A DNA stretch of 34,856 bases. Origin: Chitinophaga pinensis (GTDB lineage Bacteria > Bacteroidota > Bacteroidia > Chitinophagales > UBA10324). The notes below the pieces were generated by a model. The model did no database searches. It was given only the letters and a program-made list of their open reading frames with translations, and was not told where the DNA came from. The translations under genes and the position numbers were made by a program. Where the stretch lies: the NCBI GenBank assembly GCA_945903305.1, contig CAMDOA010000024.1, positions 1-34,856 of the forward strand, read 5' to 3'. Shown one piece after another: positions 4,601-34,856 of the stretch; positions within the stretch are counted from its first letter, which is position 1; every line of letters begins with the position of its first letter.

Positions 4601-4601
4601 A

Positions 4602-4637: not shown

Positions 4638-4658
4638 TCGCCTTCAAAAAATAAAGCA

Positions 4659-6314: not shown

Positions 6315-6337
6315 ACGAAGAATAAAAAAATAAATAT

Positions 6338-7927: not shown

Positions 7928-7967
7928 GGTTTATTTCTCCGTTTTTAATTTTTTAAAAAATGTGTAC

Positions 7968-10417: not shown

Positions 10418-10545
10418 TTTTTCTTCCTGCAACAATTCAGATTGAATCACCGTGCGAAAATATCTTTTTCAGAAAAGTAAAATGGAAAGATTTCATTTCT
10501 TAATTTTCATTCCCTGCAATTACTATTTTGCGCACGCAATAAAAA

Positions 10546-11340
10546 ATGAATTTGAAATCGCCACTCGCTAAAAAATCTCTCGGTCAGCATTTTCTGCATG
10601 ATGAAAATATTTCAAGCCGGATAGTTGATTCGTTGATGGATAAAATCGGTGAATCAAAAAATGTAATTGAAATTGGTCCTGGTCCCGGTGCGCTGACAAA
10701 AATTTTATTGAAAGAAAAAATAAATCTTCGCTGCATTGAATTGGATCAACGGATGATTGAACACTTGAATAAAACATATCCGGCTTCAAAAGATAAAGTC
10801 ATTCACGGCGATTTTCTCACTGTGAAACTATCTGAAATTTTCTCGGATAAATATTCAGTTGTTGGAAATTTTCCATACAACATTTCTTCTCAAATACTTT
10901 TCAGGATTTTACAGGAGCGAGAATCCATTCCATTAATGGTAGGTATGTTTCAAAAAGAAGTTGGCGACCGCATTGCTTCTATTCATGGAAATAAAACTTA
11001 CGGAATACTGAGCGTGCTGGTGCAGGCCTATTATGATGTCGAGAATCTTTTTATTGTGGAACCATCTTCATTTACTCCGCCACCAAAAGTGAGAAGTGTG
11101 GTGCTTCGGTTAACATTGAAAAAAGAAAGAGCGGAGATTGCCGATGAAAAATATTTTTTCGCATTTGTAAAAAATGCATTTGGTCAACGCCGAAAAACAT
11201 TGCGCAATTCTTTATCGCAAATAATTCAAAAAGATAAATTGACTGATACAATTTTTGATAAACGCGCCGAACAATTGAGTGTGCAGCAATTTATTGAACT
11301 GGCAAATAAGTTTTCAAAAGAAAATGGAAAGCAAGGGTAA
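10546..11340 (+). CDS. rsmA: 16S rRNA dimethyladenosine transferase RsmA (KsgA)
   Basis: The 264-residue protein dimethylates two adjacent adenines in the loop of the 3'-terminal hairpin of 16S rRNA (A1518/A1519 in E. coli) using S-adenosylmethionine, a late step of small-subunit assembly. Visible motifs: KKSLGQHFLHD (10-19), SAM-binding EIGPGPGALT (42-51), the acidic ELD (65-67), HGDF (87-90), catalytic motif NFPYNISS (108-115, with Phe for the common Leu) and FTPPPKVRS (176-184). Length is normal. The gene is divergent from priA, with 128 bases between starts. Its 3' end overlaps the start of the next gene by 17 bases, suggesting translational coupling. Confidence 0.96.
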   Translation: MNLKSPLAKKSLGQHFLHDENISSRIVDSLMDKIGESKNVIEIGPGPGALTKILLKEKINLRCIELDQRMIEHLNKTYPASKDKVIHGDFLTVKLSEIFSDKYSVVGNFPYNISSQILFRILQERESIPLMVGMFQKEVGDRIASIHGNKTYGILSVLVQAYYDVENLFIVEPSSFTPPPKVRSVVLRLTLKKERAEIADEKYFFAFVKNAFGQRRKTLRNSLSQIIQKDKLTDTIFDKRAEQLSVQQFIELANKFSKENGKQG

Positions 11341-12268
11341 AGTTTTAATTACTGATAAAGTGGATGACCTGTTGATTCTGGGATTAGAAAAACTCGGATA
11401 CGAATGTGATTTCAGAGTAGGCATTTCGCAGGAAGAGGTGGATAGAATTATTTATCAGTTTGAAGGAATTGTTATCACTACAAAAACGACTTTGTATAAA
11501 CCCACTCTTGAAAAAGCTTCGCTATTAAAATGGATTGCACGCGCTGGTTCCGGAATGGAAATAGTGGATGTTGAATTTGCGAAATCAAAAAACATCAAGT
11601 GCATTAATTCACCCGAAGGAAACCGGAACAGTGTAGGCGAACATGCGCTCGCATTATTATTAGCACTCACACACAATATTGTTCGCGCATCAAAGCAAAC
11701 CGAGAAATTAATCTGGCAAGTAGAAGAAAACAGAGTCACAGAAATTTTAGGAATGACGATTGGAATTATCGGATACGGAAACACAGGTTCATCCTTCGCC
11801 GAGAAATTAAAAATGTTCGGAGTAAAAATTCTGGCGTACGATAAATACAAAACTGATTTTGGAAATGAGGTTGTCAAAGAATGTGAAATGGAAAAATTGT
11901 ATTCGCAATGTGATGTAGTGAGTTTGCATGTACCGCTCACAAATGAAACTCATCACCTTGCCAATGAGAATTTCTTCAGCAGTTTTAAAAAGAAAATTTA
12001 TTTCATCAATACTTCTCGTGGAAAAGTGGTTGATACTTCAGCATTACTCAATGCAATTATTCAGCATAAAATAGCAGGAGCAGGGTTCGATGTTTTGGAA
12101 AATGAAAATTTTTCATCACACACTTCAACTGAAAAAAGTATGCTGGAGCATTTAATACAAACCGGTAAAATAATCATCACTCCGCATGTTGCAGGAAAGA
12201 GTTTCTCCACCCGAAAAAAGTTTGCTGAAGTGCTTTTAGCAAAGATTATGGCATTGCATGAATTGTAA
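11324..12268 (+). CDS. D-isomer-specific 2-hydroxyacid dehydrogenase (SerA-like, no ACT domain)
   Basis: Started at the ATG at 11324 the protein has 314 residues; the longer GTG start at 11279 would reach further into rsmA and adds no family sequence. It is an NAD-dependent dehydrogenase with the two-domain D-2-hydroxyacid fold. Landmarks: NSVGEHALALLLAL (102-115), the nucleotide-binding GIIGYGNTG (147-155) with Asp173 in AYDKY favouring NAD over NADP, and catalytic Arg232 (NTSRGKVVD), Glu261 (GFDVLENE) and His288 (TPHVAG). The family includes phosphoglycerate dehydrogenase; the short form without a regulatory ACT domain fits several 2-hydroxyacids, so serine synthesis is possible but unproven. 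It overlaps rsmA by 17 bases and is probably co-expressed with it. Confidence 0.85.
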   Translation: MESKGKVLITDKVDDLLILGLEKLGYECDFRVGISQEEVDRIIYQFEGIVITTKTTLYKPTLEKASLLKWIARAGSGMEIVDVEFAKSKNIKCINSPEGNRNSVGEHALALLLALTHNIVRASKQTEKLIWQVEENRVTEILGMTIGIIGYGNTGSSFAEKLKMFGVKILAYDKYKTDFGNEVVKECEMEKLYSQCDVVSLHVPLTNETHHLANENFFSSFKKKIYFINTSRGKVVDTSALLNAIIQHKIAGAGFDVLENENFSSHTSTEKSMLEHLIQTGKIIITPHVAGKSFSTRKKFAEVLLAKIMALHEL

Positions 12269-12323
12269 AAGAATTGTCAGCATTGCATGTAACACTTGCA
12301 CGCTGCTTTAAAATTAATCTACA

Positions 12324-12357
12324 TTAGTTCCATAATTCAAAATCGCGATTAAATTTG
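12324..12357 (+). promoter_or_regulatory. Candidate promoter of the TonB receptor/exported protein/PorV operon
   Basis: TAAATTTG at 12350-12357 is an exact match to the Bacteroidota -7 consensus TAnnTTTG. The only -33 candidate is a poor TTAG at 12324-12327, 22 bases upstream. It lies in the 142-base gap upstream of the receptor gene, leaving a leader of about 45 bases. Confidence 0.5.
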
Positions 12358-12410
12358 TCCGCCTCCAAGATGGAAAAGCTTAACAATAATTTAAACCAAA
12401 ACCACAGGGC

Positions 12411-15400
12411 ATGAAAAAAATTTTCTCCCTCTTCTCTCTCCTGCTTGTTTCTGCAACAACTGCTTTTGCACAAACCGGTGAACTGCAAGGAAAAATAATA
12501 AACGCCGGTTCAGCATCAGGCGAAGGTGTTGAGTTTGCCACGGTAGTTTTACTCCGGAATGGCAGTCAGATAACCGGTGCCATTGCCGATATTGATGGCA
12601 ATTATATTATTAAACCAATTACACCCGGCACTTATGATTTAATGGTATCGTGTGTTAATTTTAAATCCACAACCGTAATCGGAATTTTAATCAGTGCTGA
12701 TAAAATAACTCCCTTAAATGTAAAATTGGGAAGCAGCGCTGTAAATCTGGATGATATTATTGTGTATGAAAAAAAATTAATTGATCCGGATAAAACTTCA
12801 ACAGGCGGAACAGCTTCGCATAACGAAATTCAACAAACTGCCGTAAGCCGTAGTAATCCTAATAATATAGCCGCAAAAACCGCAGGAGTTTATCAGGCAG
12901 ATGCCGGAGCAGGATTAAATGTAAATGGTGGAAGAGGATACGCGCAGAAATATTATGTTGATGGTATTCCAATGAGAGGTTCTATTTCATTGCCTTCATC
13001 ATCCATAGAACAATTGACAATAATTACCGGTGGAATTCCGGCGAGATATGGCGATGCAACCGGTGGTATTATTAATATTACCACGCGAGGTCCATCTAAA
13101 TATTATCATGGAGGATTAGAATTAGGCAACTCTTATATTTTAGATGCTTATGGTTATAAGTTAGCCAGTTTAAATTTGAGCGGACCACTTTTCACAAAGT
13201 ATAAATCATCAAGAGGAACCAAGCAGGATTCATCTGATGCCAAATTAGGATTTTTCCTTTCAGCAGAATACGAAGGTAATGTTGACAGCGACCCATCAGC
13301 AGTTGGAAACTGGAAAGTAAATGACAGTTTGTTAACCTCACTTCAGGAAAACCCGCTTCGCCCATCAGACATCGGATTAGGATTTGTTTCGAACTCGTCG
13401 TTTGTAACAAAAAAGGATTTAGTACCAATTAAAGCAATGCAATATGCGAATGACAATAATTATCGCATGTCGTTAAAGATAGATTACAAGTTAAATGAGT
13501 TTATCAATATTACTGTCGGCGGAAATGCAAATTATGCCCAGTTTTTAAATAACGGATTTACCAATCAGGTATTTACTCCGTCAACAGCAGCAAATTTTCA
13601 AGACTTAACATATCGTGGTTTTGTAAGATTTACTCAACGATTTGGCACTGCAAAAAATACCGAAGGCGAAAAAACGGATAAAGAAAAAACAGCTTCTGTT
13701 TTCCAAAATGCTTATTACAGCATTCAGGTTGATTACAGCAAGTTCTTACGGAAATTTGAAGATAAAGACAAAGGCTTTGATGCGTTTCAATATGGGTACA
13801 TTGGAAAATTCAAAACTTATAGAACACCGGTTTATTTCCCGGGTCAAGACACCGTTTGGGAAAATGGAGTGCCTAAAATTTATAGTGGCTTAACCTTAGT
13901 TGGCTACAGAGATACATTGGTAACTTTTGAACCGGGTGCTCAAAACGGATTAATGTCAAACTACACCAAACAATATTATACATTGGCTGGTAGCAATCCG
14001 ATTGATGGAGTTTATGGGTTACAGGATTTAGATCCGATAAACCAATCGCTTTATTATGGTTCTTTATCAGATATCTCATCAGGAGGAGGATTATTGAATG
14101 GAGATGGACCTTCATCAGTTTACTCCATGTGGGGAAATACTGGTTCGCCTATTGGATCGTTTGGACGAACAAATAATGACCAGTATCGATTAGCTTTTTA
14201 TAGTTCAGTTGATATTGTTCGACCATCAAAAACAAAGGGAGAAAAAAACAGACATGCGATTGAATTCGGTATTGAGTATGAACAGCGATCTGACCGTGCA
14301 TATACTGTAGCTCCTATAGGGTTATGGGGATTAGCCCGCCAGCTTGCAAACAAGCATATATTAAATCTTGATACCAGAAATCCGATTTTGGTATATGACG
14401 AATTTGGAATTTTTCAGGATACAATTAATTACAATCGTTTAGTTGGAAATGATCAGGCTTATTTTGATTTGAGCCTTAGAGATAAATTAGGCTTAGACCC
14501 TCGTGGAACAGATTTTATTAATATTGATGAGGTGGATCCTGCCCTTCTGACTTTAGATATGTTCAGCCCCGATGAACTCTTTAATAATGGAAGCGCGTAT
14601 GTAAGTTATTATGGTTATGATTATTTAGGCAATGTGTTAACCAAGCAACCAAGCTTCGACGATTTCTTTAACAAGAATCCGGAAGATAAATATTACCCGA
14701 GAAAAATTGGAGCTTACCGCCCAACTTATGTTGCCGGTTATATTCAGGATAAATTCAATTTCAAAGACCTGATTTTTAATATCGGATTGCGTGTTGATTA
14801 TTATGATGCAAATCAAAAAGTATTAAAAGATCCATACTTATTGTATCCAGCCAAAACTTCTGCTGAGGTAACTGAAATTGGTGGTATCGATATCACTCAT
14901 CCTGCTTCAATCGGTTCTGATTATGTTGTTTATGTCGATAATCCAACCGATCCAACAAGCATTGTTGGATACAGAAACGGAAATACCTGGTATAATGGAG
15001 AAGGTACTGAAGTATCGAACCCACAGGTTATAGCGCTGGCTACCTCTACCGGAAAAATTGCACCCTATCTCACCAGTTCAAGTACTGATAGTTTAATTGT
15101 AACTCCTGATGCATTTAAAGATTACGATCCGCAATATACTTTAATGCCTCGTATTGCTTTCTCTTTTCCAATCAGTGACGAAGCACTTTTCTTTGCGCAT
15201 TACGATGTGTTGTCGCAACGACCAACTGCTAATCGTGGTAGCCCATTTAACTATTATTATTTACAGTCAATTGCAGTTAATTCTACATTGCAAAATCCGA
15301 ATTTAAAACCTGAAAAAACAATTGATTACCAGGTCGGCTTTGAACAAGTGATTGGAAAAAATTCGGCTTTGTCTATTTCCGGTATCTATCGTGAGTTCAA

Positions 15401-16202
15401 AAATCAGGTGCAGATTAAAAAATATTTTTATGCCTATCCTACTAATTACACCACTTATGGCAACGAAGATTTCGGTACCGCTAAATCATTATTGGTTTCT
15501 TATGAAATGCGTAGAACCAAAAACATCAGAATGGAAGCAAATTATACCTTGCAGTTTGCTGATGGAACAGGGTCTGATCAATCTTCGGCAGGAGGACTAA
15601 TAAGTGAAGTAAACCCGAATTTAAAAACCATTACCCCATTAAATTACGATCAGCGCCATACGATTACCACCACTTTTGATTATCGTTTTGGAGAAGGAAA
15701 GTTTTATAACGGTCCCGTAGCTGGAAAAAATAAAAAACCAATTTTAGCCAATACCGGTTTAAATGTCATTTTCACCGGAGGTTCAGGTACACCCTACACG
15801 CGTCAAAGTAATCCGACACCGGAAGGTCTTTCAGGCGTAGCTACACAATCGTCATTAAAAGGAACTTTGAATGGTGCCCGACTTCCATGGTCATTCCGTT
15901 TTGATGTTAAACTGGATAAAAATTTCAGAATTGGAAAAGCCGGAAATGAAAATAATCCGTTTTACATAAATGGATACATTTTAATTGAGAATGCATTGAA
16001 TACCAAAAATATTTTAAGTGTTTATCCATACACCGGCAATCCAAATGATGATGGTTATTTATCGTCTGCGGTTGGTCAGCAATCATTGGAAACACAACTG
16101 AACGAACAAGCTTACTTAGATCAATACTCCATCAGAATAAATAATCCGGGCAACTACACATTACCACGCAGAATCCGTTGCGGGTTATCATTTGATTTTT
16201 AA
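12411..16202 (+). CDS. TonB-dependent receptor with carboxypeptidase-like regulatory N-terminal domain
   Basis: This 1263-residue outer membrane protein has a signal peptide cleaved after TAFA (residue 20), a carboxypeptidase-D-regulatory-like beta domain (about 24-110, with GSQITGAIADIDGNYII and TPGTYDLMVS), a plug domain (about 135-235, with AAKTAGVYQADAGAGLN, YYVDGIPMRG and ARYGDATGGIINITTRG), and a large barrel ending in the terminal aromatic signature LSFDF. Such receptors import or move large ligands using TonB energy. It is not paired with a SusD-like lipoprotein, so a classic glycan-uptake locus is unlikely. It heads a plus-strand run with the 1248-residue exported protein (19 bases after) and a PorV/PorQ-family protein. 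The ligand is unknown; dedicated handling of the neighbouring exported protein is an inference. Confidence 0.9.
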   Translation: MKKIFSLFSLLLVSATTAFAQTGELQGKIINAGSASGEGVEFATVVLLRNGSQITGAIADIDGNYIIKPITPGTYDLMVSCVNFKSTTVIGILISADKITPLNVKLGSSAVNLDDIIVYEKKLIDPDKTSTGGTASHNEIQQTAVSRSNPNNIAAKTAGVYQADAGAGLNVNGGRGYAQKYYVDGIPMRGSISLPSSSIEQLTIITGGIPARYGDATGGIINITTRGPSKYYHGGLELGNSYILDAYGYKLASLNLSGPLFTKYKSSRGTKQDSSDAKLGFFLSAEYEGNVDSDPSAVGNWKVNDSLLTSLQENPLRPSDIGLGFVSNSSFVTKKDLVPIKAMQYANDNNYRMSLKIDYKLNEFINITVGGNANYAQFLNNGFTNQVFTPSTAANFQDLTYRGFVRFTQRFGTAKNTEGEKTDKEKTASVFQNAYYSIQVDYSKFLRKFEDKDKGFDAFQYGYIGKFKTYRTPVYFPGQDTVWENGVPKIYSGLTLVGYRDTLVTFEPGAQNGLMSNYTKQYYTLAGSNPIDGVYGLQDLDPINQSLYYGSLSDISSGGGLLNGDGPSSVYSMWGNTGSPIGSFGRTNNDQYRLAFYSSVDIVRPSKTKGEKNRHAIEFGIEYEQRSDRAYTVAPIGLWGLARQLANKHILNLDTRNPILVYDEFGIFQDTINYNRLVGNDQAYFDLSLRDKLGLDPRGTDFINIDEVDPALLTLDMFSPDELFNNGSAYVSYYGYDYLGNVLTKQPSFDDFFNKNPEDKYYPRKIGAYRPTYVAGYIQDKFNFKDLIFNIGLRVDYYDANQKVLKDPYLLYPAKTSAEVTEIGGIDITHPASIGSDYVVYVDNPTDPTSIVGYRNGNTWYNGEGTEVSNPQVIALATSTGKIAPYLTSSSTDSLIVTPDAFKDYDPQYTLMPRIAFSFPISDEALFFAHYDVLSQRPTANRGSPFNYYYLQSIAVNSTLQNPNLKPEKTIDYQVGFEQVIGKNSALSISGIYREFKNQVQIKKYFYAYPTNYTTYGNEDFGTAKSLLVSYEMRRTKNIRMEANYTLQFADGTGSDQSSAGGLISEVNPNLKTITPLNYDQRHTITTTFDYRFGEGKFYNGPVAGKNKKPILANTGLNVIFTGGSGTPYTRQSNPTPEGLSGVATQSSLKGTLNGARLPWSFRFDVKLDKNFRIGKAGNENNPFYINGYILIENALNTKNILSVYPYTGNPNDDGYLSSAVGQQSLETQLNEQAYLDQYSIRINNPGNYTLPRRIRCGLSFDF

Positions 16203-16221
16203 AACGAATAAATAAAGCGTT

Positions 16222-19200
16222 ATGAAAAAAAATACTTACTCCTTTGTTTTAGCAACTATTTTAATTGCCTTAACAACTCATTCAAAAGCTTATAAAAATA
16301 TCGGGCAACCCGAAAAAAAGGAATCTACTCATAAAGTGGAAGCTGGTGACTGTAAACCCGCAACTGCTGAAATTGATTTGAACATCAATAACATTCGTGC
16401 CCGACTAATGAATGGGGGTGACATGTGGTGGGACTTAAATACCGCTGCAAAATATGAGGTACCTAAAGTTCCGGTTGGTAGTACTGATCAGCGAAATAGT
16501 TCCTTATTTGCAGGGGCTGTTTGGATTGGTGGTATTGATTTGGGAGGTCAGTTAAAAATTGCCGGCGCCACTTACCGTCAGTCAGGAAACGATTTTTTTC
16601 CTGGACCATTAGATGGAAACGGCGAAGTTGACCAGCAAACCTGTACTGATTTTGATAAACAATGGCAAGTGCTCGGTTCAGAAATTGATGCTTTTAAAGA
16701 ACTTTTTGTTGGGCATGTGCCAGGCGATGGATTTCAAATTGATGCGGCATCTGTTCCAACAAATATTTTAAAATGGCCCGGCAGGAATAATCCCAACGAA
16801 GCATTAGTAGGTCAACGGGACCTTGCCCCATTTTTTGATTATGATGAGAATGGTGAATATGACCCTATTCTTGGTGACTTTCCTGTAATAAATTCTGATT
16901 ATCAAAATTATGCTGATCAAATGATTTGGTGGGTTTATAACGATAAAGGAAATATACACACTGAATCGGGTGGACAAGCGATTGGAATGGAAATTCAAAC
17001 ACTCGCATTTGCTTATAAAACTACTGACGAAGTTGACAACATGACTTTTTATAAATATGTTTTATTAAACAAAGCAACCACCACGCTCGATTCAGTTTAC
17101 ATGGGGCAGTGGGTCGATCCTGATTTAGGTTGTTATACTGATGATTACATTGGATGCGATACTACTCGTGGACTGGGCATAATTTATAATGCCGATGCAT
17201 TGGATGAGCAATGTGGTAATCCGGCATCAGGATATGGCGATCAACCACCCATTTTAGGTATTGATTATTTTAAAGGACCATTAGATGAAGACAGTGTGGA
17301 GTTAGGCATGTCATCATTTTTATATTACAACAATGATTTTACAAAAACCGGAAACCCGGAAAATGCCTCACATTTTTATGGTTACTTATCAGGCTCATGG
17401 AAGGACGGAACTCCGTTTACCGAAGGTGGCAATGCGTATGGAGGATCAGTTCCAACAAAATATGTTTTCCCGGGAGTACCTAACGACCCAACCGGATGGT
17501 CAGAATGTGTTGAGAATAATACACCTGCCGATCGCCGATTTGTACAATCGTCAGGCGCTTTTAAATTAACACCGGGTGCAAGTAATGAAATCATAATTGG
17601 TGTGGTTTGGGTTCGCCCTCCTGTTGGAACCTATCCTTGCCCGAGTTTTAATCTGCTGCAAACTGCTGATGATAAAGCTCAGGCATTATTTGATTCAAAC
17701 TTTAAAATATTAGATGGACCAAAAGCACCCGATCTTGAAATTGTAGAATTAGATAAAACGCTAATACTTAATTTAGTAAATACTTTTACCAAGGATATTG
17801 AAAAATATCGCGATGCCGACCCAATACTTATTGCATTAGGCGATCCTGATTCAGCTTATTATTTTCAAGGATACCAGATATTTCAAATAGCAAGCACAAA
17901 GGTGAGTGCACAGGAATTGAGCGATCCATCGCAAGCTCGCCTGGTAGCACAATGTGATCACAAAGACCTGGTATCAAAAATTGTTAATTTCACTTACGAC
18001 CCATTGTTGGAAGCAGAAGTTCCTGTTTTAAAAGTGAATGGTGGAAACCTTGGTCTTCGTCATTCATTTGAATTTGAAAACGATGCATTTGCCACCGGCG
18101 ATAAACGATTAGTGAACCATAAGAAATATTATTACATGGTGGTTTCTTATGCTTACAATGGTTCTGCATTACAAAAAACAAAGTACTTGCAAGGAAGAAA
18201 GAATACAAAAATTTACACAGCCATTCCGCATATTCCGGCTCCTGAAGTTGGGGGATTAATTATAAATTCTGAATATGGCGATGGTCCGCAGATAATTCGT
18301 GAAGAAGGAAAAGGAAATGGTGGATTAAAATTGGAAATCACAGAAAATTCAATTAAAAATATATTGGACTATGGTTTTGATTCTCGTGTTGAATACAAGG
18401 GTGCTAAAGGGCCTGTGCTTGTAAAAGTTATTGACCCTAAAAATGTTCCTGCTGCTAATTTTGAAATTACATTAATTGATACTGGATCAACTTCGGCCAC
18501 AATGGTGGGAACAAGCAGCTACTGGAAATTAACTAATTTAAATACCGGTGATGTAATTGTCAGCGATACTACTCTTGACTTTGGCAATGAACAGATGATT
18601 CCTGATTGGGGATTGTCAGTTTATATAAAGCAGGTTAGAAATCCGGGCAGCAAAACCATTGATGATAATAATGGATTTATCGATGCCTCTATTACTTATG
18701 ATGAACCACAAATAACCTGGCTCAGCGGAGTACCTGATCAGGAAGGCGATGATGATTTAAACTGGATTCGTTCAGGCACTTATAATAATCCAGACCAAGA
18801 CCCTGATCATCCGGATTATGTTGGTTCCGATGATAATCAGAATTACGAAAATATTTTAGACCGTACCGTAGCTCCTTACCATTTATGCTCCGATAATATT
18901 GATTATGGCCCGATATGGAAAAATACCTCTACTCGAATTCAAAATAAATTGGATAGTTTGACCAGCGTGAAAATTGTATTCACTTCTGATAAAACCAAGT
19001 GGTCACACTGCATAGTTTTAGAAGCACAACCTGAAAAAACATTATCCCAAGGCAATGCACCCAAAATGGGTATCAGAAATCATGGATCCTTAAATCTTGA
19101 TGGTACTTATCAAACAATAAGTACTACCGACCCAATGTCAAAAGGGTACTCCTGGTTTCCTGGATATGCCATTGATTTAGAAACAGGAACACGATTGAAT

Positions 19201-19999: not shown

Positions 20000-21070
20000 A
20001 TGAAAAAAATAGCAATCATCATTTTAATTTTTTCGGCAACTGTGACAACAACAATTGCCGGAAATAAAGATCGTGCAGGTCAGGCGGGTGCATATGAGTT
20101 ACTGATAAATCCATGGGCAAGAAGCAGTGGCTGGCATGGATTAAATACAGGAAGCGTGAGAGGTCTTGAAGCCATGAACCTGAATGTAGCCGGTTTATCG
20201 TTTACTCAAAAAACCGAAGTACTGTTTTCGCATTCTATTTATTTAAAAGGAACCGGAATAAATATTAATGCTTTTGGTTTCAGTCAGGCACTTGGAAAAT
20301 CAGGTGGTGTGCTTGGAGTTAATCTAATGGCCATGAGTTTCGGCGATATTTTAGTTACTACGGTGAATCTTCCCGAAGGTGGAATCGGAACATTTCAACC
20401 ACAATTTATTAATCTCGGAATTGCTTATGCAAAAAGTTTTTCGAACAGTATTTATGGTGGAATAGTTATTCGTGCAATAACTGAAAGCATTGCCGATTCA
20501 AAAGCATCAGGCCTTTCTTTTGATGCCGGAATACAATATAAAACAGGCGATAGAAAGTTTGACGACCGTGTAAAATTCGGTATTGCATTACGCAATATCG
20601 GAACACCCATTAAATTTCAGGGTGATGCACTTACCTTCAAAGGAAATGCAACCGAAGGAGATTATCAATTAACGGTTTCGCAACGGTCGCAGCAATTTGA
20701 ATTACCATCATTGCTTAATATCGGAGCTTCGTATGATTTGCATTTTGGAAAAAGCATTGGTGAAAATAAAACCACCCATAGAATGACCATTGCCGCAAAC
20801 TTCACCTCTCATTCCTTTCAGCGAGATAATGTGGGCGCAGGAATTGAATATTCATTGAAAGATCAGTTTATGGTGAGAGTAGGATTTAACCATGAAGCCG
20901 GATTGTTAAGCGAAAGCACCAGAACAAATGTGTACACCGGTTTGGCAGGTGGATTTACTTTTGAATTACCAACCAAGAAAAACGGCCCATCAGTGGCACT
21001 CGATTATTCCTACCGCGCTTCAAATCCATGGGGCGGAACTCATACTTTGGGGGCTCGCATAAATTTATAA
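20000..21070 (+). CDS. PorV/PorQ-family outer membrane barrel protein
   Basis: This 356-residue protein has a signal peptide (MKKIAIIILIFSATVTTTIAG) followed by the family's start pattern: DRAGQAGAYELLINPWARSS, then GLEAMNLNVAGLSF. The rest is alternating beta strands in the FadL-like layout of PorV/PorQ, ending in LGARINL. In the T9SS, PorV is the shuttle that carries cargo from the translocon SprA to the attachment complex; other paralogues sit beside individual cargo genes. Here it is the last gene of the run after the receptor and the large exported protein, 31 bases downstream, and is followed by a strong terminator. I infer a cargo-specific paralogue rather than the central PorV, because of its company. 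Confidence 0.8.
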   Translation: MKKIAIIILIFSATVTTTIAGNKDRAGQAGAYELLINPWARSSGWHGLNTGSVRGLEAMNLNVAGLSFTQKTEVLFSHSIYLKGTGININAFGFSQALGKSGGVLGVNLMAMSFGDILVTTVNLPEGGIGTFQPQFINLGIAYAKSFSNSIYGGIVIRAITESIADSKASGLSFDAGIQYKTGDRKFDDRVKFGIALRNIGTPIKFQGDALTFKGNATEGDYQLTVSQRSQQFELPSLLNIGASYDLHFGKSIGENKTTHRMTIAANFTSHSFQRDNVGAGIEYSLKDQFMVRVGFNHEAGLLSESTRTNVYTGLAGGFTFELPTKKNGPSVALDYSYRASNPWGGTHTLGARINL

Positions 21071-27885: not shown

Positions 27886-28806
27886 ATGAAGTATCCTGAA
27901 CAATTAGCCTCCGATGTAAAAAACTTTATCGCCGATTTGCGGGCGGAAGTAGTTGCAGCTGAGTTAATCGATAGAGGAGTTAAACAGGATGAAATTTCTT
28001 TTAATACAAAAGGAATAAAACGCAGACCTTTTAGTAGAGATATTTTTGAAATCAAATTGCCGAATGATGATGATGAGCATTATAAAATTTTATTAAACCG
28101 CGAAGGCATTTATGATTCACTGCCCGAAGCCATTTTTCATCAGCCGTTAAATTCAAAACCATTCAAGTCGAAAGAAGAAATTCTGGATGAAATTAAAATT
28201 CAGCGGCAGGAAGAAATTGAGGCGCGAAAATTTTTTTTCCCGATGGAAAATGAATTTAACCAGTTACGATTACTGCTGGAAATAACTGAGCGCAAATCGA
28301 ACGATAATTTTTCAGGCAGTTCAGTTATACAATTATTTTACAAACTATTTGGTACCGTTTCTTATTTCAACAATGCGCAAATAGCCGTATTGCTTTCGTT
28401 ACTTCCGAATATTTATGAGTTGAAAGGTGAATTGAAAATTTTAAGTAAGTATTATTCGCTTTTGCTCGGCGACGAAATAAAAATTAAAATGAAAAACGAA
28501 ATCAGAAATCATCATTTGGAAAAACAATCGGATGAAATTATATTGGGGGTATCAAGTTTAACAAGTAACCAGTTGACTTATTCAGAACAAATTATTTCCA
28601 TTGAAATTTGGCCGAAAGAAAACAACCGTATTTCATTGTACCTGAACGATGGAATCTGTTTGAAAATTCTGAATTTTCTGAATGATTATTTCCTGCCTTT
28701 TGAATTTGAAAAGAAATTAGATTTATTGCTGCCTGAAAAAAATAGAGCGTCAATTTTGGGTGATTTAAAGTCCCCCTCTTTTTTAGGAGCGAATTCTTAT
28801 ATTTGA
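27886..28806 (+). CDS. tssG: TssG-like T6SS baseplate protein (Bacteroidota type)
   Basis: This 306-residue soluble protein has no signal peptide. It has an N-terminal helical region (DVKNFIADLRAEVVAAELI), then FSRDIFEI (49-56), REGIYDSLPEAIFH (72-85) and RKFFFPMENEF (114-124). The second resembles the GLYG-x-LP-x-Y motif of TssG. Size and place, as the first gene in a packed operon with TssN, TssK and TssO, agree. TssG with TssF and TssK forms the wedge of the T6SS baseplate that recruits tube and sheath. The call rests mainly on context and short motifs; a different baseplate part is possible. It starts 29 bases after pgk; its stop is 8 bases before the next ATG. Confidence 0.6.
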   Translation: MKYPEQLASDVKNFIADLRAEVVAAELIDRGVKQDEISFNTKGIKRRPFSRDIFEIKLPNDDDEHYKILLNREGIYDSLPEAIFHQPLNSKPFKSKEEILDEIKIQRQEEIEARKFFFPMENEFNQLRLLLEITERKSNDNFSGSSVIQLFYKLFGTVSYFNNAQIAVLLSLLPNIYELKGELKILSKYYSLLLGDEIKIKMKNEIRNHHLEKQSDEIILGVSSLTSNQLTYSEQIISIEIWPKENNRISLYLNDGICLKILNFLNDYFLPFEFEKKLDLLLPEKNRASILGDLKSPSFLGANSYI

Positions 28807-28814
28807 GCCCAACT

Positions 28815-29663
28815 ATGATGCACCTTAATCTTCCTTTTATCACTGTAACCGGAATAATTTGCTTAATCAGTTACACCATTTTTACTTATTTAAATAAGCA
28901 GAAGCAGGATTTTAAATCGCTTCGATTAGTAGCAACCTCATTAATTTTTGTACTGGTTCATTTACTCGCCGGTTTCGTTGCTTTAATTGATTCTGTTTTT
29001 CCATTCATAATCTATATTGGCATACAGGTTTTAAGTTTAATAACCGGTGCATTTTTTTATCACACAATTCTGAAGCCGTACTACCCTAAATTTAATTACA
29101 AAGTAGTTTCAACCATCATACTTTTTCTGCTTGTCATCGGATTGTCGGCAGTGTTCTTCACTTTTATATTTGATATTTTTAATGTCAGCGGATTGGGTTG
29201 GTATTATTCCACAGCGTTTTTTGCATTCGTAATTCCGTTTTTTTTCTACAACACTTTTGAAGCAATAATTAAAATTCCGGTTCCGATTTTTAAAGTCTGG
29301 TATTATCCTGAATATGCCTCGGAAATAGATTTGGATGAATTGGATTTGAATAAAGTAAAAGTGATTGAGTTAGAGTTTTTAAAAAATCTGGGCGAAACAA
29401 GCACAACAAATTTCAAAGCAAAAGCGCCTGAAGAATTACGATTCGGCGATTGGTTTTCATTATTCATTCAAAATTACAATCAAAAATATGAAGACAACCC
29501 GATTGTGATAAAAGACAAAACGGATGCGCCGTATGGTTGGGTATTTTACATAAAACCTGGTTTTTTTGGCTCCAAAAAATTTGTTGATTTTGATTTAACC
29601 ATTGTTCAAAATGTGCTGACAGAAAAAATGATAGTTGTTTGTCGCAGAGTGGAAAACAAATAG
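28815..29663 (+). CDS. tssN: TssN, T6SS-iii inner-membrane protein
   Basis: Read from the ATG at 28815, this is a 282-residue membrane protein: about five hydrophobic segments in the first 155 residues, then a soluble domain of about 130 residues, probably cytoplasmic, with FGDWFSLFIQNYNQKYED and PYGWVFYIKPGFFG. An upstream TTG at 28803 overlaps the previous stop and is less likely. TssN is specific to the Bacteroidota T6SS, which lacks the TssJLM complex; it is part of the trans-envelope assembly that docks the baseplate. The assignment uses architecture plus neighbours TssK and TssO. It is followed after 6 bases by tssK. Confidence 0.75.
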   Translation: MMHLNLPFITVTGIICLISYTIFTYLNKQKQDFKSLRLVATSLIFVLVHLLAGFVALIDSVFPFIIYIGIQVLSLITGAFFYHTILKPYYPKFNYKVVSTIILFLLVIGLSAVFFTFIFDIFNVSGLGWYYSTAFFAFVIPFFFYNTFEAIIKIPVPIFKVWYYPEYASEIDLDELDLNKVKVIELEFLKNLGETSTTNFKAKAPEELRFGDWFSLFIQNYNQKYEDNPIVIKDKTDAPYGWVFYIKPGFFGSKKFVDFDLTIVQNVLTEKMIVVCRRVENK

Positions 29664-29669: not shown

Positions 29670-30821
29670 ATGTTACCAGAAATTAAGAATCTTTATGTGA
29701 ATTGGATTGACGGTATGAAAATCAATAAAAATCTTTTTATTGAAACCAACCTCGCCAATATTGACGCCATCAGAGATGCAGTATCAATCGGATTGAACGA
29801 TTTCAGTTATGGATTACTGCCATCAGAAAAAGGCAGCGAATCATTGAGTTTAGATCTAATTGACACCCGCGCAAATAGTTTTAAACTGAAAATAAATTTA
29901 TGCAGAGCGGTTACTAATGGCGGATGCCGTATTGAAATTTTAAAATCGAGCAGTGAATTAGCCATTACTCAGGACATTAAAGATATGGATGGTGGCAAGG
30001 GGGCAAAATCACTGGTATTTGATTTAGTGCTGACAGTAAACCCATATGATCGGAAACCGTATGGTCAACCTCATGCCGATGAATCGCCTTTGCGATATCC
30101 GTTCACAACAAACGATTATAAAATTCAAATTGTACCGAGTGATCAGTTAAGTAATTACGATATTGGAAATTTCAGTTTAACGCTCGGACGCATCGTGTTA
30201 AAAGGCGACGAATATATTTTCGATTCAAAATACATTCCGCCCTGCACCAGCATCAATTCACACGCATCATTAATCAGTTACTATCGAAAACTTGGCAGTT
30301 CGTTAAATACCATTGAAGAAAACTGTACAAAAATTATTCAGAAAATAGTTTCCAAAGGGCAAACGACCGCGCTGGCAAACAATGTGAAACTTCTTTGCGA
30401 AAAAATACTGTACTACATCAGCGATATATTTTTTCAGTACAGAATGCTCGCTTTACAAAAACCACCCATATTTTTAATAGATTTTTTTATCCGGATGGCC
30501 AATCAGGTTCGCGTGCTCAACGATTGTTATGCTGAAAAAGAAAAAGAAGAAATGCTCAGCTACTTTACTGAGTGGACAGAACTAACTGCTGGAAATTTTG
30601 ACAACATGCTGAACGATTTAGTGTTCCATGATTACGATCATCGCAACATCAATAACTCGATGCAAAAAGTTGAAAATTTTGTTTTACTCATTGATAACCT
30701 AATGAACAAACTCAGTTCGCTTGATTTAATCGGCAAGCGAAAGGAGCGCGACATATTTGTTCGTGAAAAATCAAATGCAGCAAAACCCGAAACAAAAAAA
30801 GGCTGGTCATTACTTGAATAA
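29670..30821 (+). CDS. tssK: TssK, T6SS baseplate-to-membrane connector
   Basis: This 383-residue cytoplasmic protein begins with a TssK-like pattern VNWIDGMKINKNLFIE (10-25), corresponding to the W-x-x-GM-x-hydrophobic start of the family. It also has FIFDSKYIPPCTSIN-type sequence near 183-195 (YIPPC at 188-192), which TssK proteins carry before the helical middle domain. The C-terminal part (about 320-383) is shorter and more basic than the classical head domain that binds TssL/TssM; Bacteroidota TssK is expected to dock on TssN/TssO instead. TssK joins the baseplate to the envelope complex. It lies between tssN and tssO with gaps of 6 and 26 bases. Confidence 0.7.
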   Translation: MLPEIKNLYVNWIDGMKINKNLFIETNLANIDAIRDAVSIGLNDFSYGLLPSEKGSESLSLDLIDTRANSFKLKINLCRAVTNGGCRIEILKSSSELAITQDIKDMDGGKGAKSLVFDLVLTVNPYDRKPYGQPHADESPLRYPFTTNDYKIQIVPSDQLSNYDIGNFSLTLGRIVLKGDEYIFDSKYIPPCTSINSHASLISYYRKLGSSLNTIEENCTKIIQKIVSKGQTTALANNVKLLCEKILYYISDIFFQYRMLALQKPPIFLIDFFIRMANQVRVLNDCYAEKEKEEMLSYFTEWTELTAGNFDNMLNDLVFHDYDHRNINNSMQKVENFVLLIDNLMNKLSSLDLIGKRKERDIFVREKSNAAKPETKKGWSLLE

Positions 30822-30847: not shown

Positions 30848-31366
30848 ATGAAACCAAAAAACGAAAAAGAAATAAATAATGCTTTTTTTCAATTCTTATT
30901 GTTGTTCTTACTAACAGTTGTAATTGTGGTGGTAGCCGTGTTTTTTGATTATGGATTTCCATGGAAAGATTACAGTAATGTAAAATCACAGTTCAGAGAA
31001 GTAAGTAGTGTGTTGAATAATAAGAATGCATTAATTACAAAATTGGATTCTATTAATGCAGGGTTGTCCCGCTATGATTCACCCGGTTCGGTCCCATCAA
31101 TAATTGAATCTGATATTTCCAGTAAATTAACCGAACTCAAACAAACAACAAGCTCTGACAGTGCTTCGATAAAATTAAACAATTCATTATTCAGAGCTTA
31201 TTCAATGTTGCTGAAAAGCAAAATTGATTTCCGAAAGTTGAATGAAGAGAACGGCAAACTGCAATATGATTTAACTACATTACAAACATCATACGATAAG
31301 TTAAAAGAACAGTATGATGATTTAGATAAGCAGTACGAATCAATAATAAACTCAAGACGCCAATAG
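30848..31366 (+). CDS. tssO: TssO-like T6SS-iii single-span envelope protein
   Basis: The 172-residue protein starts with a short charged tail (MKPKNEKEINNAF), one hydrophobic segment (about 13-34) and the junction FFDYGFPWKDY, followed by a periplasmic region ending in a predicted coiled coil (about 120-170, with regular Leu/Tyr spacing and many Lys/Glu/Asp). This fits TssO, a Bacteroidota-specific bitopic protein of the T6SS trans-envelope complex with TssN, TssP, TssQ and TssR. The match is by architecture, the N-terminal pattern and operon position; sequence is variable in this family. No tssP, tssQ or tssR is recognisable in the window. Confidence 0.65.
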   Translation: MKPKNEKEINNAFFQFLLLFLLTVVIVVVAVFFDYGFPWKDYSNVKSQFREVSSVLNNKNALITKLDSINAGLSRYDSPGSVPSIIESDISSKLTELKQTTSSDSASIKLNNSLFRAYSMLLKSKIDFRKLNEENGKLQYDLTTLQTSYDKLKEQYDDLDKQYESIINSRRQ

Positions 31367-31378: not shown

Positions 31379-33112
31379 ATGGTCAGAATTATTCGGTATT
31401 GTTTATTTACAGTAATAATTTTTTTTTCTGCCCAAAATATTTCCGCGCAAAAAAAACTGAAGGGTACCGGTTCATTTAGTAACAAGAACGATTCATCCTT
31501 TCATTTTATTTATAACCGTGATACGGTAAATGACGGTTCCTATACTTCAAACTATAAGATTATAAATTTGGATGGCTTAGCCGAGGCAAGTATTGTTCAT
31601 TTACAATCAGAGCAGCGGATAGAAATAAATTTTGTTTCATCAAAAGGGGCTTCACCTCACAAAAAAGTAATTAGATATCTGTCAAATGGCGGATATATAT
31701 TTCTTGATTTTGCCGATACTTTGCAGGTGGATATAAATAAAAAATATCGGTTGGTTTTATTTTTTGAAAATACACATAAAGAAGGTTTTATTTTTATCAA
31801 TCAACTGACAGCCTTAAATGAGGAAGTACCTAAAATTCATTTAGTCATGGATCCGATTCCTGCCTGGTTGTTGAAAGAGAATCACTCGAAAGTGGAATAC
31901 TATTTATTGAAAGGAACACCGGAAAGAAGAGTGAAATACATGAAGTTTTTAGATAGTCTGAACCGCGAAAAAAGGATAAAGTGGTTATCCGATAGTATAT
32001 CATTGGGTGTAAGAAGTGAATATGCATACAAACAAAAAGCATTTCAGGAAAAAAGAGACTCTACGGTTTTAAATGCCAGTATTCCATTAACCAATGAATA
32101 TTTAGCCATTACCCGACAGGAATTGCGGGGCTTGGTTGATACCATGCTGCATAATTATGAAAGTGCTTACTTTTCTTCTTACACAAAATTTTTAATTGAT
32201 ACATCAGGAAAAATTGAGAATTTTGATGTCGGAAATATCAGATCAGATATATCCAATACAAAATCATTTGTAGGGGAATTAAAAAACAGAATTGCCGGTC
32301 ATCAATTAAAAACGATGATGATGTACGATGATTCAGGAGTGGCATATACTATGGCAACAAAAATTCAATTTGCCATTAACTTTAACAAACAAACCAATAT
32401 TGTTCGCACCAATATTTATAAAAAAGCAGAACCCAAATTATCCGGATTTACTTTAACCGATCAGCATTATAAATCTGTATTGATTGATAGTTTAAAAAAA
32501 ATGAAACCCGGAAAGTATCGGATGACCATTGATTACTTTAATATTATCAACGATACTTCGTACACAATTTCTAAACTGAAAAACATCAGTGATAAAAGTT
32601 ATTTAAAGATCGGATTTAGTTATGGAACTTTTTTTAGTCAAACAGGAAATAATCCGGTTAACTACAAAGGCGATTTAAATTTTCCATATCAAAATATTTA
32701 TGCTGTATTTAAGTTTGGAGGTTTGTTTTTTGGAACGAGTATGATAAAAATTTACGGGTCGCAGTTACCGGATGTTCCATGTAACGAGTTTGTTTTTAGT
32801 TCAACAAGTGATTTGATAAGTAGCACTTACAATAATCAAATGAAATATACTGAGTATGGAATTTATTTAAGCCCATCGCATTTGATTTATTTAAAGGCCG
32901 GCATGGCTTCGCAAAAAAATAACGAAATGATTTATAAGTATTCTGAGAACGAACCAAACAATAGTTGTTATGAGATAAATGAAAATAAAAGCGGATTCAT
33001 TTTAGGGCTTGCTTGCGTTCCGAAATTTTTTACATTAGAGGCGGGATATAATACTCTCGTGCAGAAACCTTTTTTAAACTTAGGATTTAACATTCCAATA
33101 AACACAAAATAA
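31379..33112 (+). CDS. Unrecognised exported protein with a probable outer-membrane barrel, in the T6SS operon
   Basis: I do not recognise the family of this 577-residue protein. It has a signal peptide (cleavage near residue 23, after NISA). Residues about 25-160 are beta-rich. A charged helical stretch follows (about 165-260). Residues about 265-338 (YTKFLIDTSGKIENFDVGN, then FVGELKNRI, then TMATKIQFAINF) have the strand-helix-strand spacing of a TonB-C-like domain. From about 408 to the end, alternating aromatic strands (YLKIGFSYGTFFS, NIYAVFKFGGLFFG, YGIYLSPSHLIYLKAGM, FFTLEAGYN, FLNLGFNIPIN) suggest a small beta barrel. The gene is 12 bases after tssO and 5 before the adhesin, so it is probably co-transcribed. 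It could be an outer-membrane partner of the envelope complex or belong to the adhesin; this is inference. Confidence 0.7.
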   Translation: MVRIIRYCLFTVIIFFSAQNISAQKKLKGTGSFSNKNDSSFHFIYNRDTVNDGSYTSNYKIINLDGLAEASIVHLQSEQRIEINFVSSKGASPHKKVIRYLSNGGYIFLDFADTLQVDINKKYRLVLFFENTHKEGFIFINQLTALNEEVPKIHLVMDPIPAWLLKENHSKVEYYLLKGTPERRVKYMKFLDSLNREKRIKWLSDSISLGVRSEYAYKQKAFQEKRDSTVLNASIPLTNEYLAITRQELRGLVDTMLHNYESAYFSSYTKFLIDTSGKIENFDVGNIRSDISNTKSFVGELKNRIAGHQLKTMMMYDDSGVAYTMATKIQFAINFNKQTNIVRTNIYKKAEPKLSGFTLTDQHYKSVLIDSLKKMKPGKYRMTIDYFNIINDTSYTISKLKNISDKSYLKIGFSYGTFFSQTGNNPVNYKGDLNFPYQNIYAVFKFGGLFFGTSMIKIYGSQLPDVPCNEFVFSSTSDLISSTYNNQMKYTEYGIYLSPSHLIYLKAGMASQKNNEMIYKYSENEPNNSCYEINENKSGFILGLACVPKFFTLEAGYNTLVQKPFLNLGFNIPINTK

Positions 33113-33117: not shown

Positions 33118-34856
33118 ATGAAATTATATAATAAATTGACAGTGCTGTTTTTTTTAATGATTGCTTTTAAGACTACAACAGCTCAAACCATTTCTCTCAA
33201 TTCACAATTTGGACAATACTGTCCAAGCGATACAATTGCGGTTAATTTTAATTATGATGGTTATACTGTTGGCAACCTTGTAATTTTTAATGGTGAACTT
33301 TCTTCAACTGCAGGAACTTTTGGATCTCCAACAGCAACAAATACAATTTCTGTAACCATTCCAACCGGTGGATCCGGCGACACTATTGTCATTCTAACAA
33401 TTCCGGCAAGCCCGGGATTTAGCAGCGGCTATAAAGTAAGGGTAAGAACTGTTTCACCTAATACTAATATAGTTAGTAATGCATTCACAATAAATAACCC
33501 GACAGTTGATGCCGGCTCAGCCCAAACCATTTGCTCTAATTCTAATGCATCATTAGATGCAACTCTTGGAGGAGGTGCTATTACTGCAACATGGTCAGGT
33601 GGGGGAACTTTCTCGCCAAATGCAAATACAATTGATCCTACATGGACTCCATCGGCAGCACAAATAACAGCAGGAACTGCAACACTTACAATTACAACCT
33701 CAGGTATATGCCCGTCAGTAAATGATAATGTGATAATAACAATTAATGCCGCCGCAACTGTTGATGCCGGAACTCCTCAAACAATTTGTTCCAATTCACC
33801 TTTGCAATTAAATGGCACTATTGGAGGTGGCGCTGTTTCAGGTACATGGTCCGGTGGTGGAACATTTTCGCCAAATGCAAATACAATTGACCCCACATGG
33901 ACACCCTCAGCGGCACAAATAACAGCTGGAACTGCAACTCTTACATTAACCACTAATGACCCTTCCGGCCCTTGTTTATCTGATAATGACAATGTGGTTA
34001 TTACAATAAATGCAGCAGCCATTGTCAGTGCCGGAGTTGATCAATCAGAGTGTGCCGGAACTGCAATCAGTATGAACGGAAATTTTGGAGGAGGAGCATC
34101 AGCAGCAGTCTGGGCATCGAGTGGAACCGGCTCATTTAATAACACCAGTTTGATGAATGCGGTGTACACACCTAGTCCGGCAGATATCGTAGCCGGAACT
34201 GTTACAATTACTTTAACAACAAATGATCCTTCAGGTCCATGTCTTTCTGTTTCTGACCAGATGATAATTACTATAACCCCGGGTGCAACAGCAAATGCTG
34301 GTGTAAATCAAACTATTTGTGCTGGTTTAACAGCAACAATGAGCGGAAGTTTTGGAGGGAGTGCTGCATCGGCTTCATGGTCAAGTGGTGGTTCAGGTTC
34401 ATTTAATAATGCAAGTTTAATGACCGCAATATATACACCAAGTGCTGCTGATATTTCTGCAGGTTCAGTAACCATTACACTTACTACTAATAATCCAGCG
34501 GGACCTTGCAACGCCGGAACCGATCAAATGGTTTTAACTATTAATCCTGTTGCAACTGCAAATGCCGGTATTGATCAGTCAATTTGTTCAGGCACAACAG
34601 CAACGATGAGTGGAAGCATAGGAGGTGGTGCATCGTCTGGAACATGGACTACAAGTGGTACTGGCACTTTCAATAATGCAAGTTCAATGAGTGCTGTTTA
34701 TACCCCGAGTGCTGCAGATATTGCAGCAGGAACGGTAACAATTACTTTAACTACAAATGACCCGGCAGGGCCATGTGTTGCTGTAAATAATCAAATGATA
34801 CTTACCATTAGTCAGGCAGCAACCGTAAGTGCAGGTGTTGATCAGACTATTTGTTC
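33118..34856 (+). CDS. Adhesin-like protein with tandem Ig/PKD-like repeats, C-terminus outside window
   Basis: The frame opens at the ATG at 33118 and stays open for 579 codons to the window end. It begins with a signal peptide (MKLYNKLTVLFFLMIAF..., cleavage near TTA before QTISL), then a unique domain of about 105 residues with YCPSDTIAVNFNYDGY, a pattern of surface beta domains. After that come tandem repeats of about 85-89 residues, each starting (T/I)(V/A)xAGxxQxxC and ending GPC...ITIN. Such repeats occur in very long Bacteroidota surface proteins, often ending in a gliding-motility-associated or T9SS sorting domain; here the end is missing. Likely role is adhesion or surface coating; ligand is unknown. 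It starts 5 bases after the 577-residue gene. Confidence 0.85.
   Translation, partial: MKLYNKLTVLFFLMIAFKTTTAQTISLNSQFGQYCPSDTIAVNFNYDGYTVGNLVIFNGELSSTAGTFGSPTATNTISVTIPTGGSGDTIVILTIPASPGFSSGYKVRVRTVSPNTNIVSNAFTINNPTVDAGSAQTICSNSNASLDATLGGGAITATWSGGGTFSPNANTIDPTWTPSAAQITAGTATLTITTSGICPSVNDNVIITINAAATVDAGTPQTICSNSPLQLNGTIGGGAVSGTWSGGGTFSPNANTIDPTWTPSAAQITAGTATLTLTTNDPSGPCLSDNDNVVITINAAAIVSAGVDQSECAGTAISMNGNFGGGASAAVWASSGTGSFNNTSLMNAVYTPSPADIVAGTVTITLTTNDPSGPCLSVSDQMIITITPGATANAGVNQTICAGLTATMSGSFGGSAASASWSSGGSGSFNNASLMTAIYTPSAADISAGSVTITLTTNNPAGPCNAGTDQMVLTINPVATANAGIDQSICSGTTATMSGSIGGGASSGTWTTSGTGTFNNASSMSAVYTPSAADIAAGTVTITLTTNDPAGPCVAVNNQMILTISQAATVSAGVDQTIC
33505..34856 (+). repeat. Five complete and one partial in-frame repeats (255-267 bp) of the adhesin
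   Basis: Repeat starts, set at the residue before xAG, are 33505, 33760, 34024, 34291, 34558 and 34825, giving periods of 255, 264, 267, 267 and 267 bases, all in frame. Repeats 1-2 carry TFSPNANTIDPTWTPSAAQI; repeats 3-5 carry SFNN-x-SLM-x-AVYTPSxADI. Every complete repeat has exactly two cysteines, near its start and near its end. Confidence 0.9.

What the first reader, a model, noticed from the sequence alone, without database searches (positions are those of the whole stretch)
31379..33112. Unknown 577-residue exported protein in the T6SS-like operon: possible outer-membrane component
The protein has a signal peptide, a TonB-C-like stretch (about 265-338) and a probable small beta barrel at the C-terminus, an arrangement I cannot place in a described family. 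It is 12 bases from tssO and 5 from the adhesin gene. Subtype iii T6SS lacks TssJLM and uses TssNOPQR to cross the envelope; a barrel protein with a periplasmic domain would be a plausible outer-membrane anchor or peptidoglycan-linked partner. It could also be the secretion or anchoring partner of the adhesin downstream.
Basis: inference. Interest (0 to 1): 0.65.

Follow-up and report, generated by a model that had tools for sequence, protein, structure and literature searches.

The report
Outer-membrane barrel protein in T6SS operon
A bacterium's toxin-injection gene cluster also carries an undescribed outer-membrane protein beside a secreted surface protein, which hints that these bacteria may add a custom outer-surface part to their injection machine.

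Summary
The 577-aa ORF (here X) is real: exported, under purifying selection, matched full length at 73% identity in two congeners. Its C-terminus (about 406-577) is very probably an eight-stranded outer-membrane barrel, judged from profile homology to stand-alone exported proteins and a low-confidence model whose top matches are small barrels such as Ail, OmpA, OmpX and OprF. Two predicted outer loops are hypervariable. The TonB-C-like stretch was not confirmed, and X is not detectably related to TssP, TssR, TssO or TssQ.

X lies between tssO and tssP of a T6SSiii locus, followed by Y (PKD-like repeats, T9SS sorting tail) and Z (probably a second barrel protein). Full-length X was found only in the three tssN-positive genomes of the genus. 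A Y-Z-TssP-222aa-TssR block recurs, without X, in another family. Barrel-only relatives lie outside T6SS loci, and four of five sit directly before another exported-protein gene.

Most likely X is an outer-membrane partner of Y; coupling of its conserved core to the T6SS envelope complex is inferred. An outer-membrane anchor role is a serious rival, because TssR here has no lipobox. New variant of a known kind.

The parts
27886..28806 (+). 306-aa protein, TssG by position and homology
   Evidence: No Pfam family; phmmer finds relatives in other T6SSiii loci, in most of those inspected just upstream of tssN. tssN lies between tssK and tssG according to PMC10781749 (section read).
28803..29663 (+). 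tssN
   Evidence: PF17555 E 5.1e-66.
29670..30821 (+). tssK
   Evidence: TIGR03353 E 2.5e-5 and PF05936 E 5.8e-4, both below their curated cut-offs; position between tssN and tssO.
30848..31366 (+). tssO
   Evidence: PF17561 E 8.9e-18.
31379..33112 (+). X, the 577-aa protein of the finding
   Evidence: full-length homologues L002 and L003.
31379..31450 (+). X residues 1-24, type I signal peptide
   Evidence: Read by eye; no lipobox.
31451..31873 (+). X residues 25-165, N-terminal domain, beta-rich in a very low-confidence model, 67-69% identity
   Evidence: Weak similarity to the N-terminus of an M16-peptidase protein of a congener without tssN (30%, E 1e-5; hhalign 67.6% local).
31874..32593 (+). 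X residues 166-405, conserved presumed periplasmic core
   Evidence: 92-93% identity at 166-262, 78-82% at 263-340, 88-89% at 341-405, window against the two congeners.
32171..32392 (+).
   Evidence: No Pfam or PDB support.
32594..33109 (+). X residues 406-577, predicted eight-stranded outer-membrane barrel
32747..32839 (+). Predicted outer loop L2 (457-487), hypervariable, holds C468
   Evidence: 10/31 and 9/31 identical.
32915..32986 (+). Predicted outer loop L3 (513-536), hypervariable, holds C530
   Evidence: 7/24 and 7/24 identical; C468 and C530 both Cys in two homologues and both Ser in the third.
33118..34854 (+). Y, N-terminal part of the repeat surface protein, cut by the contig end
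   Evidence: The full-length Y of L002 carries PKD_5 (PKD_6 below cut-off) and a Por_Secre_tail T9SS sorting domain.

Best explanation
X is a Sec-exported outer-membrane protein with an N-terminal domain, a conserved, presumably periplasmic core (166-405) and a C-terminal eight-stranded OmpX/OmpA-size barrel with two long variable outer loops. It is encoded in the T6SSiii operon together with Y, a PKD-repeat protein with a T9SS sorting tail, and Z, probably a second outer-membrane barrel protein. I think X holds or positions surface protein Y at the outer membrane, while its conserved core reaches towards the T6SS envelope complex (TssO/TssP/TssR), so that Y is displayed where the T6SS fires, for example as a contact adhesin or an outer cap. 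Shown: gene, gene order, selection, distribution in the genomes searched. Well supported: export signal (by reading) and barrel. Inferred: one transcript, the X-Y contact, the X-T6SS contact, the adhesin role.
For: Order tssO-X-Y-Z-(start of tssP) lies on one contig in L002, with gaps of 11, 6, 3 and 16 bases; contigs C24 and C57 of the window's genome hold the same genes with gaps of 12, 5, 3 and 16. Full-length X occurs in exactly the tssN-positive genomes among 16 of the family (3 of 3). Barrel homology; barrel model. The barrel genes in G692, G237, G191 and G377 are each directly followed, same strand, by a gene for an exported protein: 2928 aa; 196 aa with similarity to a T9SS tail; lipoproteins (by reading) of 1065 and 1064 aa. 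The exception is G020. X's variability is concentrated in predicted outer loops L2 and L3, its conservation in the core. Y and Z have T6SSiii-linked counterparts in another family.
Against: None of the five other barrel genes lies in a T6SS locus in the stretches read: G237 has no tssN, G191, G377 and G020 gave no TssO match, and G692 has tssN only on another contig. X is absent from the f17 loci that have Y- and Z-type genes, so Y can be displayed without X there. No usable model of the core and no interaction data. Predicted loop L1 is conserved (18/20, 17/20), and the amphipathicity test was negative. In L003 the tssO-X gap is larger (26 or 32 bases, by start codon).
Confidence: 0.42

Rival explanations
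1. X is the outer-membrane anchor of this lineage's T6SSiii membrane complex, taking over the anchoring that a lipidated TssR gives in B. fragilis; Y is incidental.
For: TssR of G000 and G015 has a type I signal peptide by reading, with no Cys in residues 1-60, while TssR of G216 and G316 has a lipobox. PMC10781749 describes TssR as the possible outer-membrane lipoprotein (passages and discussion read). Full-length X co-occurs with tssN. The core before the barrel is the most conserved part of X.
Against: G104 and G330 also have TssR without a clear lipobox, and no X- or Z-type gene was found in the fetched stretch. G341 lacks the lipobox and has a Z-type gene but no X. Barrel relatives mostly occur without a T6SS. 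X was found in one genus only.
Confidence: 0.25
2. X, Y and Z are a self-contained surface-protein module that only shares the operon, with no part in T6SS function.
For: The same kinds of parts occur elsewhere without T6SS: X-type barrels before other exported proteins, and Z-type barrels next to T9SS-tail proteins in G196 and G234, which lack tssN.
Against: The module sits inside the tssO-tssP interval with short gaps (3-16 bases in L002 and the window's genome), and Y- and Z-type genes sit beside tssP-type genes in another family too. Full-length X is absent from the three congeners without tssN; one of them has only an N-terminal similarity.
Confidence: 0.23
3. X is a receptor-like or self-recognition outer-membrane protein whose variable loops distinguish kin from prey for this T6SS.
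For: Loops L2 and L3 are the most variable long stretches of the predicted barrel, and X is the least conserved of the genes compared between the window's genome and its two congeners.
Against: Between the two congeners themselves X is not the least conserved gene (86.8% against 77.8% for the TssG-type gene). Such loop variation is usual in surface barrels (recalled); only three sequences; no partner known.
Confidence: 0.06

Closest known systems
T6SSiii membrane complex TssNQOPR of Bacteroidota (PMC10781749; passages and three sections read, discussion in part)
   Same: X is encoded among tssG-N-K-O and tssP-(222 aa)-tssR and bears an export signal.
   Different: No detectable sequence relation of X to TssP, TssR, TssO or TssQ. 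In the text that I read none of the five is described as an outer-membrane beta-barrel (Pfam calls a TssR N-terminal domain 'barrel'). X was found in one genus only.
PorP/SprF-type anchors of T9SS type B proteins (PMC9143113, passages read; PMC12618676, abstract and outline read)
   Same: Works-like resemblance: an outer-membrane barrel gene adjacent to the gene of the T9SS surface protein that it would hold.
   Different: X is not matched by the PorP/SprF model at E 1 and is predicted to have 8 strands, against 14 for PorP-like proteins (PMC9143113). Y's tail is matched by Por_Secre_tail, which I take as type A (recalled).
OmpA/OmpX-type eight-stranded barrels
   Same: Strand number, size and short turns on one side; VIA Z 11.7, 11.6 and 11.5 to OprF, OmpA and OmpX.
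   Different: No Pfam barrel family hit for X. The 400 residues before the barrel match no family over cut-off. The model is low confidence.
Small barrel family of G191, G377, G020, G237 and G692
   Same: Homologous C-terminal region.
   Different: Different or no long N-terminal regions; not inside a T6SSiii operon in the stretches read.

Membership tests
T6SSiii accessory component | Encoded within the T6SSiii operon | tested here: met
   tssO-X-Y-Z-tssP on one contig in L002; rest of the T6SS on C57 of the window's genome. TssP is named by reading (one N-terminal helix, PKD domains) and position, and the L002 match rests on a profile that includes its close homologues.
T6SSiii accessory component | Co-occurs with tss genes across genomes | tested here: met
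   Full-length X in 3 of 16 family genomes, the same 3 with tssN. But restricted: of 29 of 396 order genomes with TssO over cut-off, only these 3 are hit by the barrel profile, so it is no general T6SSiii part.
T6SSiii accessory component | Needed for, or bound to, the T6SS | not testable with these tools
   Needs genetics and pull-downs.
TssP / TssR / TssO / TssQ | Profile homology | tested here: not met
   hhalign probability 0.0-0.2 and 0.1-0.7 in local mode. Separate TssP, TssR and TssO genes are present. A TssQ profile (my own, set by position) found no TssQ beside TssO in the window or in L067.
Eight-stranded outer-membrane barrel (C-terminus) | Eight-stranded barrel fold | tested here: inconclusive
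   Eight strands, top matches mostly small outer-membrane or designed barrels, but pLDDT 42.8 and Foldseek TM at most 0.45; supported by homology to stand-alone exported proteins; amphipathicity count negative.
TonB C-terminal domain | Match to TonB_C profile or structure | tested here: inconclusive
   No hit in Pfam scans of the whole protein and of the segment in three homologues or in PDB sequences; no usable model of this part, so a distant fold is not excluded.
PorP/SprF T9SS anchor | Match to the PorP/SprF family model (TIGR03519) | tested here: not met
   Not listed for X at E up to 1; that model did appear, weakly, for another window protein in the same call.
T9SS substrate (Y, the neighbour) | Signal peptide plus Por_Secre_tail sorting domain | tested here: met
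   PF18962 E 3.6e-12 on the Y of L002; the window genome's own Y C-terminus is 76% identical over its last 387 residues. Signal peptide by reading.

The most novel reading that the evidence does not exclude
A T6SSiii variant with a built-in outer-surface apparatus: one secretion system (T9SS) delivers a repeat adhesin that dedicated outer-membrane barrel proteins X and Z fix above the T6SS envelope complex, replacing the lipid anchor of TssR and docking the weapon onto prey or the outer membrane.
Probability: 0.25. Interest if true: 0.8.

Novelty: new variant of a known kind. Interest (0 to 1): 0.55.

Why it matters
How the Bacteroidota T6SS crosses the cell wall and meets the outer membrane is open; PMC10781749 (first part of the discussion read) says that crossing of the peptidoglycan is unknown in B. 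fragilis and that loosely bound accessory parts may have been missed. A locus that adds outer-membrane barrel genes and a T9SS-type surface protein between tssO and tssP names concrete candidates for such accessory parts and suggests a physical tie between two secretion systems.

Tried and rejected
Full-length AF2 of X with three sequences failed (pLDDT 30.6, pTM 0.19); I did no fold search on it. Pfam, NCBIfam, PHROGs and PADLOC scans of X gave no family over cut-off; the LIC_11502 match (E 0.0014, 19 bits against a cut-off of 75), CopC and, on segments or homologues, PIN_6 and similar weak hits were set aside as chance. PDB sequence searches gave only weak unrelated hits or none. The idea that X is a divergent TssP or TssR was dropped after both were found on C57 and hhalign was negative. 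One search was run with a flag that seems to have forced end-to-end alignment; one search repeats it in local mode, with the same outcome. A motif hunt for TonB-C proteins in fetched loci found none and told nothing. The amphipathicity count separated neither X's barrel from shuffles nor any of five related sequences at p 0.05 (lowest G191, 0.061), so it is no test. The promoter and terminator scan was near chance level. The G139 match (query 6-114, two stops) was fetched and not followed further. Of the loci fetched, L049 (3.2 kb) and L065 (8.9 kb) are short contigs, so absence of X there is weak. The window genome's own Z gave no outer-membrane Pfam match; its L002 homologue gave a sub-cut-off one.

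Print check: the paper searches listed (capped lists) no paper that by title or shown abstract describes barrel proteins or T9SS adhesins in a T6SSiii operon. Beyond listings I saw PMC10781749 (passages; sections 11 and 33; first part of section 12), PMC9143113 and PMC4714493 (passages) and PMC12618676 (abstract and outline).

Full report
Observation. The ORF 31379-33112 encodes 577 residues and lies 12 bases after tssO and 5 bases before a repeat-protein gene. TssN and TssO are confirmed by Pfam; TssK is weak (below cut-offs) but in its expected place. The 306-aa gene before tssN has relatives in many of the other T6SSiii loci that I fetched, mostly just before tssN, so I read it as TssG. The window is a whole contig, G000:C24, which explains why the repeat gene is cut.

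The gene is real. Pairwise dN/dS is 0.137, 0.138 and 0.086; synonymous differences are high, so these are rough. Of the genes compared between the window's genome and the congeners, X has the lowest identity (73%; Z 95% and 90%, TssR 92%, TssH 98.5%). Between the two congeners themselves it has not (X 86.8%, TssG-type gene 77.8%, TssN 83.6%). Of Y only the last 301 codons were compared.

Wider locus. In L002 one contig runs tssG-tssN-tssK-tssO-X-Y-Z and into tssP, with gaps of 11, 6, 3 and 16 bases from tssO on. In L003 the tssO-X gap is 26 or 32 bases, depending on the start codon. Y (1058 aa) has a PKD-like domain over cut-off and a T9SS sorting tail; Z (554 aa) has an OMP_b-brl_2 match below cut-off. 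In the window's own genome Z lies on contig C57 at 95% identity, preceded by the end of Y and followed by TssP (PKD domains), a 222-aa protein with a signal-like start, TssR (four TssR Pfam domains, three of them over cut-off), an ABC transporter, TssH, TssB, TssC, TssD, VgrG, TssE, TssF and a PAAR protein (TssP, TssH, TssB, VgrG and PAAR named by position and reading). So X sits in what looks like a complete T6SSiii locus, except that no TssQ was recognised in the window or L067.

Distribution. Of 16 genomes of the family, 4 match X at E 1e-3: three full length, and one (G011) only in the N-terminal part. The three are exactly those with tssN. Of 298 order genomes 6 match, three of them partial (G011, G139, G237). 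The X profile hits 2 of 395 class genomes, the own genome and G692. TssO is over cut-off in 29 of 396 order genomes (39 at E 1e-3); the barrel profile over 396 order genomes hits 7, of which only the three congeners are among the TssO matches. A profile of X against 364 ORFs of 20 other loci with a TssO match plus L002 and L003 found only the X of L002 and L003. X is thus a genus-restricted addition as far as these samples go.

Barrel. The C-terminal part is homologous to the C-termini of a 905-aa protein in G692 and a 795-aa protein in G237, and to stand-alone proteins of 233, 244 and 272 aa in G191, G377 and G020 (hhalign local 97.4% over 471-574). An AF2 model of residues 400-577 is of low confidence (pLDDT 42.8, pTM 0.42). 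It has eight strands. Foldseek's first hits are Ail, OmpA and OmpX (only two hits under E 0.001, TM to the query at most 0.45). VIA gives OprF Z 11.7, OmpA 11.6 and OmpX 11.5, with a designed transmembrane barrel first at 12.6. On that model's topology, strands are 60/83 and 61/83 identical to the two homologues, long loops 36/79 and 34/79, with L2 (10/31, 9/31) and L3 (7/24, 7/24) extreme; loop L1 is conserved (18/20, 17/20). C468 in L2 and C530 in L3 are both Cys in two homologues and both Ser in the third, as a disulfide would predict. A crude amphipathicity test gave no signal.

Rest of X. Residues 166-262 are 92-93% identical and 341-405 88-89%, against 61% in the barrel (window against each congener). 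The TonB-C-like reading of 265-338 found no support. The N-terminal domain resembles the start of an M16-peptidase protein in G011 (hhalign local 67.6%). X shows no relation to TssR, TssP, TssO, TssQ, Z or the 222-aa protein by hhalign (local probabilities 0.1-0.9%).

Context of barrel relatives. In four of five other genomes the barrel gene is directly followed by a gene for an exported protein on the same strand: 2928 aa in G692, 196 aa with similarity to a T9SS tail in G237, and lipoproteins (by reading) of 1065 and 1064 aa in G191 and G377. G020 is the exception. G692 has tssN on another contig and G237 has none; G191, G377 and G020 gave no TssO match. This favours a surface-protein partner role for the barrel and argues against a barrel that is T6SS-specific.

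Y and Z. Relatives of Z lie beside a T9SS-tail protein and TssP-type genes in G341 and G357, of another family, followed by a relative of the 222-aa protein, TssR and an ABC transporter. There the Z-type proteins do match OMP_b-brl_2 over cut-off. In G341 this lies on the same contig as tssN; in G357 tssN is on another contig. The 222-aa family was found only in loci with Y and Z, among the loci fetched. X is absent there. This independent conservation is the best sign that surface proteins are part of a T6SSiii subtype.

Outer-membrane anchor question. B. fragilis TssR is described as a lipoprotein (PMC10781749, passages read). TssR of G000, G015 and G341 has no Cys in residues 1-60; G357 is ambiguous; G216 and G316 have a lipobox; G104 and G330 have no clear lipobox, and no X or Z was found in the fetched stretch. 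So the tie between missing lipobox and extra barrel genes is suggestive and not strict.

Conclusion. X is most likely an outer-membrane barrel protein that partners surface protein Y and may tie it to the T6SS envelope complex. It resembles PorP/SprF anchors in how it would work (PMC9143113, passages read) but is not a member of that family by the test run. I file it as a new variant of a known kind.

Noticed in passing
L083 (G341) 955-11203 and L084 (G357) 1871-12629, minus strand: A T9SS-tail repeat protein, a Z-type protein (Ig-like Big_9 plus OMP_b-brl_2), two TssP-type genes, a 222-aa-type gene and TssR lie together: a possible T6SSiii subtype with surface proteins in a second family.
   Followed up: partly
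L067 4573-5241: 222-aa protein with a signal-like start between tssP and tssR, no Pfam family; among the fetched loci, relatives found only in loci that also have Y and Z.
   Followed up: partly
L067 7687-10167: ABC transporter with an FtsX-like domain between tssR and tssH; an ABC-type gene is also next to tssR in L083, L084 and L085.
   Followed up: no
L063 (G228) 13329-16400 and L089 (G692) 6550-10118: A 281-aa plus 726-aa gene pair directly before tssG in the G228 T6SS locus is related to the 284-aa gene and the N-terminus of the barrel protein in G692 (E 2e-22 and 1e-8).
   Followed up: partly
L086 (G234) 8519-9541 and L087 (G196) 8262-9266: Z-type barrel genes (OMP_b-brl_2 over cut-off) directly downstream of large T9SS-tail proteins in genomes without tssN, resembling adhesin-anchor pairs.
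   Followed up: partly
T6SS loci L051, L052, L055, L057: TssQ (assigned by position) and TssO look homologous to each other (hhalign 98.6%, 97.9% local), so they may be an old duplication.
   Followed up: partly
window 20000-21070: PorV/PorQ-family protein (NF033709, E 1.7e-37), a T9SS-type gene on the same contig.
   Followed up: no
X C468 and C530 (window 32780-32782 and 32966-32968): Two loop cysteines are kept together or lost together among three homologues, as expected of a disulfide between outer loops.
   Followed up: partly
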